A program made the translations under genes and the position numbers. Under the pieces are notes generated by a model, which was given only the letters and a program-made list of their open reading frames with translations, did not search any database and was not told where the DNA came from. From positions 1 to 64,000 of the forward strand of contig SLHA01000054.1 in assembly GCA_007136405.1 (NCBI GenBank): a stretch of 64,000 nt of DNA, given 5' to 3'. How positions within the stretch are numbered: position 1 is the first letter of the stretch; every line of letters starts with the position of its first letter. The DNA comes from Candidatus Latescibacterota bacterium (GTDB taxonomy: Bacteria; Latescibacterota; UBA2968; UBA8231). This document shows, one piece after another, positions 12,898 to 33,334 of this stretch.

Positions 12898-13569
12898 TCA
12901 GGCAAACTCCAGGGGGCAAAAGCTCTCCGGCTGATGGAAATTGGGTCGCGGTCCACCCACCGGGGCCCAGGCGCCCCAATGGGGGTGTGAGGTGGCGTCA
13001 CCGCATTTGTAGAAATTGCCCCGCCAAACGGTTCCCGCAGTGGGCGCGGGGGCGTCGAAGTACTTGCCGAACAGGGCGAAAGGCAGATGGTATTCGATGG
13101 TCCAGGTGGTCGGACGGGTGATCTCCGGCTCGACTGTTACGGGCATGGAATGAGCCATGGGAATACTGGCTCCGTCTGCCGCGGCCATACCGAAGGTTGC
13201 CTGCCCGGCTGCCTTCTCCTGTGTCGAGGCACACCGGTGCACCAGCATGGTACCGCCGCAATTGACTTCGAAATTGAAATAGGCATCGGAGTCCGGCACC
13301 GGCGCCACGAAAAACTCGACGCAGCTGTCCTGGCAGACGCTGTCCTGGAAATGCTGCGCGACAGCATGTACGTAACGGTCTTCGACCCGGAACACGATGG
13401 CCAGGCCATCCGCGTCGTACAGCAGGCGGGCCCGGGTAACGGGATGGTGGCCGGAGTCCGGCCAGGGAAAATGGTCGATCTGCAGGGTATCGGCCTGATC
13501 CCAGCGGGGATTGTCCCAGTCGGCGTCAGGCGGGTCCAGATGGGGAACGGAGCGAATGGTATAGTGCAT
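12898..13569 (-). CDS. Carbohydrate-binding family 9-like protein
   Basis: This 223-residue protein matches stand-alone CBM9-like proteins: an N-terminal strand followed by DWDNPRWDQADTLQ, then TRARLLYDADGLAIVF, DSCVEFFVAP, YFNFEVNCGG, and a C-terminal WGAWAP...NFHQPESFCPLEF. Family members bind sugars but many stand-alone proteins have no proven ligand. There is no signal peptide, unlike secreted CBM9 modules, so a cytoplasmic role is likely. The ATG at 13569 is preceded by AGGAAGG. A perfect -10 (TATAAT on minus, 13637-13632) lies about 65 bases upstream with a weak -35. The gene is divergent from the large metallopeptidase gene. Confidence 0.85.
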   Translation of the reverse strand: MHYTIRSVPHLDPPDADWDNPRWDQADTLQIDHFPWPDSGHHPVTRARLLYDADGLAIVFRVEDRYVHAVAQHFQDSVCQDSCVEFFVAPVPDSDAYFNFEVNCGGTMLVHRCASTQEKAAGQATFGMAAADGASIPMAHSMPVTVEPEITRPTTWTIEYHLPFALFGKYFDAPAPTAGTVWRGNFYKCGDATSHPHWGAWAPVGGPRPNFHQPESFCPLEFA

Positions 13570-13890: not shown

Positions 13891-16800
13891 ATGGAAAACC
13901 TCCGCTTCTTGGCCATAAAGAGAGTGCATTTGGGCTACCTACCGGCTATTCGCAAGCTTCTGCTGGCTCTTTGTTTCTTGGGAATGCCGGTGTGGCAGGT
14001 GACCCAGGCCCAGGCGCAGTTGCAGACTATCGTCACGCGGCATTTCCGTGTGCATTTTCAGGCTGGCGCGCAAGGAACCGCCCGGCGGGTGGCGGAGACC
14101 GCGGAAGAAGTCTTCGCGCCGCTGGCCGCGGCCTTCGACTACTACGACGACTTTCAGACCATCCATGTGCTGGTGCTGGACAATTCGGACATGCTGGGGC
14201 AAGGCATGGCCAACTATTATACCAACACCATCTATCTGTGGGCGACGAATCTGGATCACGAACTGCGCGGCACGCACAACTGGATCCGTAATGTCCTGAC
14301 GCATGAGTTGACGCACATCATCACCCTCAATAAGGCGCGGCAGCGGTGGCCGTTCCAGTTCGCCGTGCTCCGGGTCGGGCGATACGACTCCAATCCGGAT
14401 ATCAGCTTTACATTTCCACTCTATCACATGAATACGCCACGCGGGTGGGCCGAAGGCATCGCGCAATACGGCCCCCATCGTTTCGGTTACGAGGCCTGGG
14501 ACTCGCACAGGGACATGGTTCTGCGCATGGCTGCGCTGGAGGACGACCTGCTGTCCTACGCGGAGATGGGCACCGTCATGGATCGCACCGGCAAGTACTA
14601 CGGAGAACTGCTGTACAACCAGGGCTACGCCATGATGCTGTACATCGAGGATCAGTACGGCGCGGACAAGGTGGATGCACTGGGGTTGCATGCCGGTTCC
14701 ATGAGCTTCGATCCTGCCGTTCGACGGGTTTTGGGCATATCGGCGGATCGGTTGTACGCGGACTGGAAAGCCCACATCACCAGCGGGTACCAGGACCACG
14801 CTGCGGCCATCCGCGCCGAGGGACTGTTCACGGGCGAGCCTCACGAGGAGTTGAACCAGGGAATCATCGAATACCATCCCCGGTATTCGCCGGACGGTAC
14901 CCGGCTGGCCTTCATCAGCAGCGAGCACCGGGAATTCGCCATACCCTACCTGCGTATCCATGATATCGCATCCGGCGAAACCCGCACGTTGAAGGGGCAT
15001 GTGGACTCGCGTGTATCCTGGTCGCCGAACGGGCAGGAAATCCTTTTTGCCCGCAACAAGGACGGGTTTAACGATCTGTTCATCTACAACCTGGAGACCG
15101 AGCGCGAGCGGCGGATCAGCGCCCGGCTGCGAGCCAAGGACCCGGCGTTTTCGCCGGACGGTAGACGGATAGCGTTCGTGCACAACGCCGATGGAACCAA
15201 CAACCTGGCGTTGATCGACCCGGACGGCACGAACCTGGCTTACCTGACCAACAACGACGACGGCACCCAGTACTGGGCGCCGCACTGGTCACCGGATGGC
15301 CAGTGGATCCTGTTCAACGCCTTCCGGGAGGGGTCCCGGGATATCGTCATGATCCGTGCGGACAGCCCACCGCGCCCCAAAGACTATGGCATACGGGATC
15401 GCCGTCAGGCTTCTCAGCCGGACTCCCTGGCCGTCTTTCCGGATTCTCTCGCCATACCGCACCCGGACACCTCCGGTTTTCGCCTGCTGGTGAGTACGGT
15501 CTTCGATGAGCGCGACCCCTGCTGGCTTCCGGACGGCAGCGGTTTCGTATTTGCCTCGGATCGCACCGGCGTGTTCAACCTGTACCAGTACACCATGGAG
15601 ACCGGTGACATACAGCAACTGACCAATGTGCTGGGAGGGGCCTTCACGCCCACCGTGGCGGGGGACGGGCGGGTCACCTACAGCGGCTATCAGGCCAACG
15701 ATTACAGCCTGTACGAGTTCCAACTGGGTGAGTACTCGCAGGCAGTGCCGGCGGAGCCTGCCGTGGACCGGGATTACCTGACGCTGCAGCAACTGCCCAG
15801 TCTGCAGGACGAATACACGGTGTCGCCATACCGCGGACGTCAGATACTGAGTTGGGTGCCCATCTTGGAGGTGGGGCCGACGTATGTGGGCGACACCTTC
15901 GGACTCAACCAGGTCAAGTTGGGGATCCAGGGGTCTTCCGGTGAAATGCTGGGTAGAGAACGCTTGACCGCGTGGGGACTGCTCGGTAAGAATTTTCGGG
16001 AAGATACGGATCTGAACGTCGATCTCGGGATGTACTACCAGCGATATTTACTGCCGCTGGAAGGGCATGGCCGGGTCTTCAACCCCATGCTGTATATCGG
16101 GGCGCAATGGCGGCGGATCAGCAATCTGCTGACGGATACCCAGGAAACGCTGGTGGATGTCGTACCGGCAGGCAACCTGTTCCCGGTCCCGGCTGATACC
16201 GCGAACCTGGTCATTCCCGCGGCGGAGCAGCACTGGTACCAGGCCGTCGAACGTCACGACCTTATCCAGAGTACCATCAGTCATCTGGCCGTGGGGGTGG
16301 AGCTGCCGCTGACGCGGCGTCAACGGCTCAACCTGCAGTATGCCTGGAGGGATCTGAACGAGGACTGGGTGCTGCGGCGTTTCCACGTCAAGGACCAGGT
16401 TTACATCGTGCAGGACGGCATGGACATCACGGCCCAGCTGCCGCCCGCGGTGCAGGCCCAACTCGGCCGGGACAGTGTCATGGTGCACGCCGAGGACACG
16501 CGGGCCTACCACAGCGGGATGAACTTCTACTCGGCCCATGATCTGGGTGTCAGCTGGCACTACCGGTCCGTGCAGCCCACAGCCAACCGGGCCATCAACC
16601 CCAAGGGACGCGCCCTGGGGCTGCTGTACCGCTATCATCATCCCACCGTGGTGGACTTCCTTTCGGACCAGGGAATCGACGACCAGGGCCAGCGCCGGGG
16701 AGAGCATGTAGACGATTTGGGTTTTCCGACGGACGCATACGGTGTCCGTCAAGATCGCCTGGTACCGGTGGAGCGGGACCTGCAGGTGAACGAATACGCG

Positions 16801-17343
16801 GCCACCTACCTGGAGCGGGTCGGTCTGCCGTACGACAATACCCTTTCCTTGACGATAGCGGGTAGTCAGCGCGATATACGGCTGAAGGATCCCGGGGACG
16901 ACAACGCTCGTATTCTGGAAGGACGGTATTACTGGCCGCTGAGGTATTACCTGGGCGGGCTCAACAACCTGAGCGGATATCCTCACTTTGCTGCCTGGGG
17001 GTCCAGCCGGATCTATGCCCGGGTCGGCTACATGTTTCCTGTATGGCCGCGTATGAGCCGGCGCATGCTCAATCTGACCTTCAGCAAGCTGTACGCCGAG
17101 ATCTTCGCGGAAGCCGGGGCGGTGGGTAATACGGGCAGTTTGAGTCCGGGAGACTGGAGCACGGATGGACTGCTTACCAGTGTGAGCGCGGAACTGCGGC
17201 TGCAGGCCTTTTCCTTTTACCGCATTCCCATGCTGGCCTATTTTCAGGTGGCTCGTCCCCTCAACCGGGATCGTGTCCATCAACGGGCCGATGACACACC
17301 TATCGATCGCTGGCGGTACTACTTCGGCTTCGGGTTGTTCTGA
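13891..17343 (+). CDS. Three-part outer-membrane protein: metallopeptidase, TolB-like propeller and C-terminal barrel
   Basis: This 1150-residue protein starts with a signal peptide (RKLLLALCFLG, probable cleavage after AQA near residue 42). Residues about 45-290 form a gluzincin peptidase: HELTH (H138, E139, H142) with E188 in GWAEGIAQY as third ligand, so the zinc site looks complete. Residues about 320-640 hold at least five PD40/TolB blades (YSPDGTRLAF, WSPNGQEILF, FSPDGRRIAF, WSPDGQWILF, WLPDGSGFVF). Residues about 645-1150 are beta-rich, with alternating strands and a final FGFGLF ending in Phe, as in outer-membrane barrels. The ATG at 13891 has no Shine-Dalgarno; a GTG at 13924 is an alternative. 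It may be a surface-anchored protease, a maturation factor or a transporter. The function is unknown. Confidence 0.85.
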   Translation: MENLRFLAIKRVHLGYLPAIRKLLLALCFLGMPVWQVTQAQAQLQTIVTRHFRVHFQAGAQGTARRVAETAEEVFAPLAAAFDYYDDFQTIHVLVLDNSDMLGQGMANYYTNTIYLWATNLDHELRGTHNWIRNVLTHELTHIITLNKARQRWPFQFAVLRVGRYDSNPDISFTFPLYHMNTPRGWAEGIAQYGPHRFGYEAWDSHRDMVLRMAALEDDLLSYAEMGTVMDRTGKYYGELLYNQGYAMMLYIEDQYGADKVDALGLHAGSMSFDPAVRRVLGISADRLYADWKAHITSGYQDHAAAIRAEGLFTGEPHEELNQGIIEYHPRYSPDGTRLAFISSEHREFAIPYLRIHDIASGETRTLKGHVDSRVSWSPNGQEILFARNKDGFNDLFIYNLETERERRISARLRAKDPAFSPDGRRIAFVHNADGTNNLALIDPDGTNLAYLTNNDDGTQYWAPHWSPDGQWILFNAFREGSRDIVMIRADSPPRPKDYGIRDRRQASQPDSLAVFPDSLAIPHPDTSGFRLLVSTVFDERDPCWLPDGSGFVFASDRTGVFNLYQYTMETGDIQQLTNVLGGAFTPTVAGDGRVTYSGYQANDYSLYEFQLGEYSQAVPAEPAVDRDYLTLQQLPSLQDEYTVSPYRGRQILSWVPILEVGPTYVGDTFGLNQVKLGIQGSSGEMLGRERLTAWGLLGKNFREDTDLNVDLGMYYQRYLLPLEGHGRVFNPMLYIGAQWRRISNLLTDTQETLVDVVPAGNLFPVPADTANLVIPAAEQHWYQAVERHDLIQSTISHLAVGVELPLTRRQRLNLQYAWRDLNEDWVLRRFHVKDQVYIVQDGMDITAQLPPAVQAQLGRDSVMVHAEDTRAYHSGMNFYSAHDLGVSWHYRSVQPTANRAINPKGRALGLLYRYHHPTVVDFLSDQGIDDQGQRRGEHVDDLGFPTDAYGVRQDRLVPVERDLQVNEYAATYLERVGLPYDNTLSLTIAGSQRDIRLKDPGDDNARILEGRYYWPLRYYLGGLNNLSGYPHFAAWGSSRIYARVGYMFPVWPRMSRRMLNLTFSKLYAEIFAEAGAVGNTGSLSPGDWSTDGLLTSVSAELRLQAFSFYRIPMLAYFQVARPLNRDRVHQRADDTPIDRWRYYFGFGLF

Positions 17344-17393: not shown

Positions 17394-17522
17394 ATGACGA
17401 CGGTCGACCGGCGCGTCCAGGCGCTGCGACGCAGAATGCTGGAGGTGCTGCGGCTTTACACCCGCAGACGCATCGTACTCGAGCCCGGCGCGTATTGGCG
17501 CCGGATGATTACGCCGAACTGA
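17394..17522 (+). CDS. Micro-ORF of 42 codons, translationally coupled to a lipoprotein gene
   Basis: An ATG at 17394 with AGAGG eight bases upstream opens a basic peptide (MTTVDRRVQALRRRMLEV to ITPN). It ends in TGA whose last base is the first base of the next ATG (TGATG). The overlap and the Shine-Dalgarno argue for translation. The peptide is Arg-rich and helical with no signal or membrane segment. It could be a leader controlling the lipoprotein or a small partner. No family is recognised, and chance cannot be excluded. Confidence 0.45.
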   Translation: MTTVDRRVQALRRRMLEVLRLYTRRRIVLEPGAYWRRMITPN

Positions 17523-18118
17523 TGCAGACACGCGCGTTGGCCTTGCTTTTGGCCGGACTGGTGGCGTGTACGGCGGGAGATCGTTCCATGCCGGAAGCGC
17601 CTGGCATCAGGGATGCCGACTGGAAGGCGTTGTGGGACCAGGCCGGCCGGGTGGACACGGTGGGTGTCGCTCATCTGGCAGAAGGCGATACCGTGAGCGG
17701 TCATGAAGGTCTCACCGTGATCGAATCCACGGTGCGTTTTCCGGAGGCGGCAGCCGGCAGTGAGGTTTTCGCCTGGGAGATCCATGCCCGTACGCTGGCA
17801 CCGGTCAAGCTGATCATCGTGCGCTACGATGACCTTGGCCAACAATACGAGCTGATCGGAGAAAGCGAAACGTTGGTGCCGCATCAGACCGGTCTGAACC
17901 GGTTCGTGCTGCAGGAGCCCATTCCTGTGCGGCGAGGAGACCTGTACGGTTTACATATGCCGGCGGCCGAGGCGGTGCCGTTCAAGGAGGTTATGAACTG
18001 GCAGACGTTGATCACCACGCGGGGATTGTCGCGCCCCTTCATGCCCCGCGATCATTTTGCCATGTACGGTTGGCGGTTCTCGGCCCGCGTCTTCTACCGT
18101 CCGACGCGGGACGAATGA
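17522..18118 (+). CDS. Lipoprotein of unknown function (198 aa)
   Basis: The N-terminus MQTRALALLLAGLVAC is a type II signal peptide with a clear lipobox (LVAC), so the mature protein should start at the lipidated Cys16. The rest is beta-rich (VESTVRFPEAAAGSEVF, LIIVRYDDLGQQYELIG, RFVLQEPIPVRRGDLYGL) and may form a single jelly-roll-like domain. It lies about 180 bp after the peptidase-barrel gene, with a coupled micro-ORF between them. A structural or substrate-handling role with that protein is plausible but unproven. The start is the ATG inside TGATG; an upstream in-frame TTG (17495) would spoil the signal peptide. Confidence 0.75.
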   Translation: MQTRALALLLAGLVACTAGDRSMPEAPGIRDADWKALWDQAGRVDTVGVAHLAEGDTVSGHEGLTVIESTVRFPEAAAGSEVFAWEIHARTLAPVKLIIVRYDDLGQQYELIGESETLVPHQTGLNRFVLQEPIPVRRGDLYGLHMPAAEAVPFKEVMNWQTLITTRGLSRPFMPRDHFAMYGWRFSARVFYRPTRDE

Positions 18119-31813: not shown

Positions 31814-33334
31814 ATGTGTGCGGGTGAGTCCTTTTATATCGGATCGGACATGAGGGGGCAGCGGACCAGCTTTCAGCCCCAGTCCTGCACCGGGCGGTGC
31901 CTGGTGGCCGCCACCGGTGCCGGCATGGCCATCGCCTTGCTGTGGATGGGATCCGTGAATGCGGAAACCGGCTCTAGCTGGGCGGGCTACGGGTATGCCC
32001 GACAGCCGGTGATGCAGGACACCGTGCGGCAGGAGGATGAGCCGCAGCCATCCGCGGAGACCGACACGCTGGAAACGGGGAATCAGGACAGTTTGCCCGC
32101 TCTGATATGGGGAGCGCCGCGGCTGCTTGTCGAAGAAGCTCCCAGAGGTCTGGTAAAGGCACAGAAAGTCGCCGCGGACCAGACCATGGACGCGGTGCGC
32201 TGGCTGGCCAAGCGCCGGCAGTTGACCATCAACGATGTTCCGTACGGGGTGACCGGCCTGCCCGTATTTTATTACAGCACCAATACCGGCTGGAATTACG
32301 GGGCCAGGATTCATTGGGTCGACTACCAGCGGCGTCCCTACAGGTATAAAACCACCATTAACACGCTGCATTCCACCCGTGGCAGGAGTGATTCGTACCT
32401 GCGTTTCAAAGTACCGAAAATATCGGATACGGGTTTCGGCGTGGAACTTCTGTTCGCCGACAGACAGGATATCCGGGTGCGGTACTACGGGCGGGGTAAC
32501 CAGTCGGAGATAGTCGACGCCTTCACCGATCCTGACAGTCCGTGCTTCCGCGACGAAAACTACTACTATTACGTGCTTCAGCAACCGAGCTTCACCTTTA
32601 CCTTGTTGCGCCATCTGTACGGTCCGCTGCGCATCTCCACGGCTGTCGGACTACAGAGTACCACGGTGCGTCCGCGCGGGGAGCGGTCCTATTACCTCGA
32701 TGCAGGAACTCCGTATGGAGTGCGGGATGGACACGCCGGCTTTGTCGGTTTCCGGTTGACGTGGGATACCCGGGATGACGAAACCGTGCCCAAGCGCGGC
32801 GTCTTTCATCGCTGGTCCTACGAGACGGCGCGTAATTCCGTCCTGGCGTTGTTCTTCGAGCCAATCGATTTCCACCGGTACACCTTCACGGATGCGCGCT
32901 ATTATCCTGTGACGCAACGTCTGAATCTGGCTCAGCGCACGATCTTCGAGGTTCTGAGCGGTACCGTGCCTCTGTACGCGTACGGGGAAATCGGCGGCGG
33001 AATAGACATCAAGGGGTTGGGGGGCAGTGATACGTTAAGGGGATACGACAGCCAGCGATTCACGGACAATGTGCGCTTCATGACCAACACCGAGTTGCGC
33101 TGTCATCTGGGCAGTCTGCAGATGTACAAGCAATACCTGGAATTTCACGCTGTCCTGTTCTTCGATACCGGACGCGTCTGGAGGAATCTGGACGACCTGA
33201 CGCTGTCCGGGCTTCACGGTAGCGGCGGCGCAGGGTTGCGTATCTACTGGAATGCCGATTTCGTCATCCGGCTGGGAGTGGCCGTTTCCACGGAACAGTA
33301 CTCCACCCATCTCAGGTACAGCAACATTTTCTGA
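31814..33334 (+). CDS. Omp85-type outer-membrane barrel (surface antigen D15-like), no POTRA
   Basis: This 506-residue protein has a long N-terminal part with a hydrophobic signal-like stretch (VAATGAGMAIALLWMGS, residues about 31-47, cleaved near VNA). A low-complexity region follows, then a barrel from about 140 to 506. Omp85 marks are LTWDTRDDETVPKRG, LGGSDTLRGYDSQRF and a C-terminal YSNIF ending in Phe. No POTRA domain precedes the barrel, so it is not BamA; it may be a TamA-like or patatin-type barrel relative. AGGA lies ten bases before the ATG at 31814. A start at the internal ATG (31850) is possible. Its last 23 bases overlap the bioY gene tail-to-tail. Confidence 0.8.
   Translation: MCAGESFYIGSDMRGQRTSFQPQSCTGRCLVAATGAGMAIALLWMGSVNAETGSSWAGYGYARQPVMQDTVRQEDEPQPSAETDTLETGNQDSLPALIWGAPRLLVEEAPRGLVKAQKVAADQTMDAVRWLAKRRQLTINDVPYGVTGLPVFYYSTNTGWNYGARIHWVDYQRRPYRYKTTINTLHSTRGRSDSYLRFKVPKISDTGFGVELLFADRQDIRVRYYGRGNQSEIVDAFTDPDSPCFRDENYYYYVLQQPSFTFTLLRHLYGPLRISTAVGLQSTTVRPRGERSYYLDAGTPYGVRDGHAGFVGFRLTWDTRDDETVPKRGVFHRWSYETARNSVLALFFEPIDFHRYTFTDARYYPVTQRLNLAQRTIFEVLSGTVPLYAYGEIGGGIDIKGLGGSDTLRGYDSQRFTDNVRFMTNTELRCHLGSLQMYKQYLEFHAVLFFDTGRVWRNLDDLTLSGLHGSGGAGLRIYWNADFVIRLGVAVSTEQYSTHLRYSNIF

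What the first reader, a model, noticed from the sequence alone, without database searches (positions are those of the whole stretch)
13891..17343. Peptidase, PD40 propeller and outer-membrane barrel in one chain
The zinc site is complete (HELTH with E188), five PD40 blades follow and the last 500 residues look like a barrel ending in Phe. I know each part, but a single chain that anchors a periplasmic or surface peptidase and a TolB-like propeller to its own barrel is unusual. It could be a self-anchored protease, or a translocator whose peptidase matures its cargo.
Basis: partly seen in the sequence, partly recalled or inferred. Interest (0 to 1): 0.65.

Follow-up and report, generated by a model that had tools for sequence, protein, structure and literature searches.

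The report
Outer-membrane-anchored peptidase with beta-propeller
This is a real single protein in which a zinc peptidase and a TolB-like propeller are joined to their own Omp85-type outer-membrane barrel; [quoted passage not shown]

Summary
Window 13891-17343 encodes one 1150-residue chain: signal peptide, gluzincin peptidase (H138-E139-x-x-H142 plus E188), six-bladed PD40 propeller (five blades found by Pfam, a sixth by eye), and a C-terminal beta-barrel. The barrel is not anonymous. Through closer paralogues it belongs to the Omp85 (BamA/PlpD) superfamily, with the L6 "GG..L(R/S)GY" motif. Pfam does not see this in the window protein itself, and both structure predictions failed, so the barrel rests on profile homology and strand periodicity.

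It is not a one-off. Relatives occur in 60 of 64 genomes of the phylum, and the genome that holds the window has four paralogous chains of this kind. The zinc site is intact in every full-length copy examined. Trees of the three domains agree on the main groups, so the fusion is ancient.

Propeller-Omp85 proteins were catalogued in 2014 (Heinz and Lithgow, "WD40-Omp85") with no function; the peptidase in front is not mentioned in that paper's main text. The enzyme of a related fusion, PlpD, was shown to stay in the periplasm. I therefore favour a self-anchored periplasmic peptidase, perhaps a BepA-like quality-control enzyme, over a surface protease or translocator. The function is inferred, not shown.

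The parts
13891..17343 (+). gene for the 1150-aa peptidase-propeller-Omp85 chain
   Evidence: one open frame, full-length orthologues at about 48-60% identity
13891..14016 (+). signal peptide, residues 1-42 (QVTQAQA|QLQT); SPase I-type AxA site, no lipobox
   Evidence: read by eye; orthologues end their leader with the same AQA-Q
14017..14850 (+). gluzincin-type (peptidase MA clan) domain, about residues 43-320
   Evidence: Pfam Peptidase_MA_2 2.8e-6, sub-threshold; over threshold in several relatives; HExxH + E conserved throughout
14302..14316 (+). HELTH zinc motif, H138-H142
14452..14454 (+). third zinc ligand, E188 (WAEGIA)
14866..15735 (+). PD40/TolB-like six-bladed propeller, about residues 326-615
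   Evidence: Pfam PD40 x5, 5e-31; TolB structures are the best PDB matches, 1.6e-12; sixth blade by eye
15808..17340 (+). Omp85-type beta-barrel, about residues 640-1150
   Evidence: homology through paralogues to PF01103; amphipathic strands; not modelled by AlphaFold2
16960..17000 (+). L6-type motif GGLNNLSGYP (approximate position; the Arg of the Omp85 (V)RGF/Y motif is replaced by Ser in this family)
   Evidence: alignment
12898..13569 (-). divergently transcribed CBM9-like protein, conserved neighbour (64-66% identity in six loci)
   Evidence: Pfam CBM9_2 6.4e-36; synteny

Best explanation
A secreted, outer-membrane-embedded zinc peptidase. Shown by sequence: a Sec signal peptide, a gluzincin peptidase with a complete and conserved zinc site, a six-bladed TolB-like propeller, and an Omp85-superfamily barrel, with peptidase and propeller where POTRA domains usually stand. 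Inferred: the barrel inserts into the outer membrane through the BAM pathway and leaves peptidase and propeller in the periplasm, under the barrel. The propeller then acts as a docking or gating platform that presents unfolded or partner outer-membrane proteins to the peptidase. The most likely role is processing or quality control of outer-membrane or periplasmic proteins, a functional analogue of BepA working next to BAM but permanently anchored by its own barrel. My estimates: architecture 0.9; periplasmic orientation 0.75; active peptidase 0.85; BepA-like quality-control role 0.35.
For: Domains. Zinc site conserved in A- and B-line relatives and in paralogues C and D. Barrel homologous to Omp85 through paralogues: B-line members hit PF01103 down to 4.4e-8 and paralogue C at 1.9e-11; window barrel against the B line, hhalign 99.9%, E 1.5e-32, and against Omp85 barrels including C and D, 93%, E 3.5e-7; strand periodicity. 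Ancient unit: peptidase, propeller and barrel trees each give a pure A clade and a pure B clade (the B clade of the peptidase tree has weak support, 0.19) with C and D together. Phylum-wide presence: 60 of 64 genomes have a relative at E <= 1e-40, 19 of 19 high-quality genomes. Not a replacement for BAM: the genome also has a BamA-like chain and TamA-like chains. Core chromosomal position with no cargo gene. Topology precedent: PlpD's enzyme domain is periplasmic (PMC11116518). Function precedent: BepA, a zinc peptidase on the BAM complex that degrades stalled LptD (PMC8423444). The barrel-less peptidase-propeller protein on a Salinibacter plasmid shows that these two domains form a unit that exists without a barrel.
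Against: Pfam does not see Omp85 in the window protein itself. The L6 Arg of Omp85 is Ser in this family, so the barrel may not behave like BamA's. BepA belongs to the M48 family, not to this peptidase family; the likeness is functional only. This genome has a separate M48 peptidase, so the quality-control niche may already be filled. No substrate is known.
Confidence: 0.5

Rival explanations
1. Type Vd-like translocator: the Omp85 barrel exports its own peptidase and propeller to the cell surface, where it acts as an anchored or released protease.
For: Omp85/TpsB relatives do translocate proteins, and PlpD was first proposed to export its enzyme domain (PMC4104836).
Against: For PlpD itself the enzyme domain was shown to be periplasmic (PMC11116518). 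A folded six-bladed propeller plus a metallopeptidase is a poor fit for passage through a 16-strand barrel (inference).
Confidence: 0.15
2. Omp85 assembly or secretion factor: the barrel inserts or exports other proteins, the propeller replaces BamB/POTRA as the docking site, and the peptidase trims the substrate.
For: Heinz and Lithgow read WD40-Omp85 as reminiscent of a BamA-BamB fusion (PMC4104836). All Omp85 members characterised before PlpD assemble or translocate proteins (PMC11116518).
Against: No linked cargo gene. The genome has its own BamA-like and TamA-like chains. The L6 Arg is replaced by Ser in this family. Four paralogous chains suggest diversified enzymes rather than one assembly machine (inference).
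Confidence: 0.25
3. Peptide scavenging: an outer-membrane peptidase that trims incoming peptides for uptake, with the barrel as anchor or pore.
For: A conserved zinc site and several paralogues would suit peptide-degrading bacteria.
Against: Omp85 barrels are not known as nutrient pores (general knowledge). The neighbourhood is housekeeping, not peptide transport.
Confidence: 0.12
4. Inactive scaffold: the peptidase fold is kept only as a binding domain.
For: Pseudoenzymes are common among multi-domain envelope proteins (general knowledge).
Against: HExxH and the third Glu are intact in every full-length copy examined, across several families and paralogue lines.
Confidence: 0.06

Closest known systems
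WD40-Omp85 subfamily (Heinz and Lithgow 2014, PMC4104836)
   Same: N-terminal TolB-like propeller fused to an Omp85 barrel, no POTRA; function untested
   Different: Here a gluzincin peptidase precedes the propeller; the paper's main text does not mention one (its supplementary domain tables could not be read here)
PlpD / patatin-Omp85 (PMC11116518)
   Same: An enzyme fused N-terminally to an Omp85 barrel; in PlpD the enzyme is periplasmic
   Different: Patatin lipase plus one POTRA instead of peptidase plus propeller; this genome also has a patatin-POTRA-Omp85 protein
Omp85-'Metallo' subfamily (PMC4104836)
   Same: Described as an Omp85 fused to a metalloprotease
   Different: The domain named there is PF00149, which I know as a metallophosphoesterase family, not a peptidase; this chain has a Peptidase_MA-type HExxH domain
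BepA (M48 zinc peptidase of the BAM complex, PMC8423444)
   Same: Proposed to work alike: a zinc peptidase held at the periplasmic face of the outer membrane near an Omp85 barrel
   Different: Different peptidase family, a TPR domain instead of a propeller, a separate protein rather than a fused barrel
TolB
   Same: Six-bladed PD40 propeller; TolB structures are the best PDB matches
   Different: No match to the TolB N-terminal domain; far below the TolB equivalog cut-off (115 against 343 bits)
Salinibacter ruber plasmid 'basic secretory protein-like protein' (WP_118831798.1)
   Same: Peptidase followed by a PD40 propeller; 30% identity to paralogue C over about 540 residues
   Different: 633 aa, no barrel

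Membership tests
Omp85 superfamily | C-terminal Omp85 barrel homologous to PF01103 | tested here: met
   Met through intermediates only: window barrel against B line 99.9%; B line and paralogues C and D hit PF01103; no direct hit for the window protein
Omp85 superfamily | 16 transmembrane strands | tested here: inconclusive
   14-16 amphipathic segments; AlphaFold2 models failed
Omp85 superfamily | (V)RGF/Y motif in L6 | tested here: inconclusive
   GG..LxGY position conserved; Arg present in related families of the phylum (LRGYP) but Ser in the window's family
Omp85 superfamily (BamA/TamA type) | POTRA domain(s) | tested here: not met
   No POTRA hit; non-POTRA Omp85 subfamilies are accepted (PMC4104836), so this bars 'BamA/TamA', not Omp85
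WD40-Omp85 subfamily | WD40/PD40 propeller N-terminal to an Omp85 barrel | tested here: met
WD40-Omp85 subfamily | Clusters with the 2014 WD40-Omp85 sequences | not testable with these tools
   The paper's supplementary sequence lists could not be read
Peptidase MA clan (gluzincins) | HExxH with a Glu third ligand | tested here: met
   H138, E139, H142, E188; conserved
Peptidase MA clan (gluzincins) | Profile match to a clan family | tested here: met
   PF13485: 2.8e-6, sub-threshold for the window protein; over threshold in relatives
BepA / M48 | M48 peptidase domain | tested here: not met
   No PF01435 hit in the scan
TolB | Equivalog score and TolB N-terminal domain | tested here: not met
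   115 bits against a cut-off of 343; propeller only
Type Vd secretion (as first proposed for PlpD) | Enzyme domain delivered to the surface | not testable with these tools
   Needs topology experiments

The most novel reading that the evidence does not exclude
A new Omp85 subfamily in which one chain combines what BamA (barrel), BamB/TolB (propeller) and BepA (zinc peptidase) do as separate proteins elsewhere: a single-chain assembly and quality-control machine for outer-membrane proteins, duplicated into four or more lines and kept across a whole phylum.
Probability: 0.25. Interest if true: 0.7.

Novelty: new variant of a known kind. Interest (0 to 1): 0.42.

Why it matters
Omp85 proteins are best known as assembly and export machines; PlpD showed that the barrel can also serve as an anchor for a periplasmic enzyme. 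A peptidase-propeller-Omp85 chain kept nearly phylum-wide, in several paralogous copies, would be a second and independent enzyme-on-Omp85 design. It makes a clear question testable: can an Omp85 barrel hold a quality-control protease at the outer membrane permanently, where E. coli uses a separate BepA?

Tried and rejected
Direct Pfam and PDB-profile searches of the orthologous barrels: no useful hit. Profile comparison with the BamA/TamA-type barrels only: weak (prob 25%). Viral contigs: no relatives. Gemmatirosa plasmid hit: PD40 repeats in an unrelated chain, no peptidase or barrel seen in its ORFs. The ORF after the Salinibacter peptidase-propeller gene was tested as a possible split-off barrel and rejected: it matches a serine carboxypeptidase. 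Searching other phyla by genome was not possible ('of' accepts only genome handles), so distribution outside this phylum is unknown here. Chance explanation rejected: one frame of 1150 codons with full-length orthologues at about 48-60% identity.

Full report
Observation. The frame 13891-17343 (+) is a single 1150-residue protein. It begins with a Sec signal peptide that ends in AQA|QLQT, a site shared with its orthologues, and has no lipobox (read by eye). Pfam finds five PD40 repeats (5e-31) and a sub-threshold Peptidase_MA_2 match (2.8e-6); that peptidase family is over threshold in several relatives. A sixth, more degenerate blade can be read at about residues 580-615, so the propeller is probably six-bladed like TolB, whose structures are the best PDB matches.

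The barrel. Pfam says nothing direct about the last 510 residues of the window protein, and the orthologous barrels as a set give one weak Omp85 hit (0.028) and no PDB hit. The assignment therefore goes through relatives. The barrel profile of the window's line (A) matches that of the nearest paralogue line (B) over its whole length (hhalign 99.9%, E 1.5e-32). Five of 13 B-line members hit Pfam Omp85 (best 4.4e-8), and paralogues C and D hit it at 1.9e-11 and 1.2e-9. In the joint alignment the L6 motif of Omp85 falls on a conserved GG..L(R/K/S)GY in all lines, followed by the strand that reads F-x-(D/E)-x-G in several of them. In the window's own taxonomic family the Arg is Ser. Independently, the region shows 14 strongly amphipathic ten-residue beta segments against 5.7 +/- 2.0 in shuffles (maximum 11 in 200), with no excess in the peptidase or propeller. 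AlphaFold2 could not model either the mature chain or the barrel from the nine sequences allowed. The barrel is thus well supported by homology but not by structure.

Distribution. Full-length orthologues at about 55-60% identity come from MAGs named Latescibacterota, and a few named Gemmatimonadetes; at least one of the latter (L002) is the same sequence as a genome placed in the window's own taxonomic family (L011, G010). In the 64 genomes held for the phylum, 60 have a relative at E <= 1e-40, including 19 of 19 of high quality. The genome holding the window has four chains of the same order: C8 (this one), C90 (1072 aa), C127 (1082 aa) and C21 (942 aa). Lines B, C and D are also widespread at stricter thresholds. 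The zinc motif is intact in every full-length copy examined (L044 has GFAEGIS). Trees of peptidase, propeller and barrel each give a pure A clade and a pure B clade, with C and D together (the B clade of the peptidase tree has weak support, 0.19). So the three domains have most likely travelled as a unit since before the phylum diversified. A barrel-less peptidase-propeller protein on a Salinibacter plasmid shows that those two domains can exist on their own.

Surroundings. Gene order is conserved in the relatives: a divergent CBM9-like gene upstream (64-66% identity in six loci), and downstream, on the other strand, genes I read as pgsA, recN, xseB/xseA, a YmdB-like phosphodiesterase and RNase Y (names from the sequences, not Pfam-tested except CBM9). 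This is a housekeeping position with no cargo-like partner. The genome also has a BamA-like chain, TamA-like chains, a patatin-POTRA-Omp85 protein and a short Omp85 protein within the window, so this chain is not the organism's only Omp85.

Mechanism. In the one enzyme-Omp85 fusion I found tested by experiment, PlpD, the enzyme domain is periplasmic (PMC11116518). By analogy I place peptidase and propeller in the periplasm under the barrel. BepA is a zinc peptidase that sits on the BAM complex and either helps or degrades barrel proteins there (PMC8423444); a permanently anchored analogue is the most economical role. The orientation, the activity and above all the role are inferences. The rivals (surface protease, assembly or export factor, peptide scavenging, dead scaffold) are scored separately.

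Known or new. Heinz and Lithgow (PMC4104836) defined a WD40-Omp85 subfamily and likened it to a BamA-BamB fusion. They also named a 'Metallo' subfamily by PF00149, which I know as a metallophosphoesterase family. Their main text does not mention a peptidase in front of the propeller ('peptidase' occurs 0 times); their supplementary tables could not be read here. A search for the term WD40-Omp85 found only that paper, and the 2024 PlpD paper still lists the WD40-like subfamily as not well characterised. I therefore rate this as a new variant of a known kind.

Noticed in passing
window 32555-33244 (ORF about 526 aa, locus L032): A second, short Omp85 protein in the same window (PF01103 3.8e-14), with no N-terminal domain found by Pfam.
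   Followed up: partly
L036 40-2295 (own genome, contig C102): Patatin-POTRA-Omp85 protein (PlpD-like) in the same genome, so it carries two kinds of enzyme-Omp85 fusion.
   Followed up: partly
window 12898-13569 (-): CBM9-like protein, divergent from the fusion gene and conserved beside it in six relatives; no signal peptide seen by eye. Its link to the fusion protein is unknown.
   Followed up: partly
window 17495-18115 (+): 207-aa ORF downstream with no Pfam hit and no counterpart at this place in the relatives' loci.
   Followed up: partly
window about 16960-17000, L6 motif of the fusion protein: The usual Arg of the Omp85 L6 motif is Ser (LSGYP) in the window's family, while related families of the phylum keep LRGYP.
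   Followed up: partly
own genome G000: No protein reaches the TolB equivalog cut-off; the genome is only about 87% complete, so true absence is not shown.
   Followed up: no
PMC4104836, 'Metallo' subfamily: The paper calls PF00149 a metalloprotease; to my knowledge that family is the calcineurin-like metallophosphoesterase family, so that subfamily's name may mislead.
   Followed up: no
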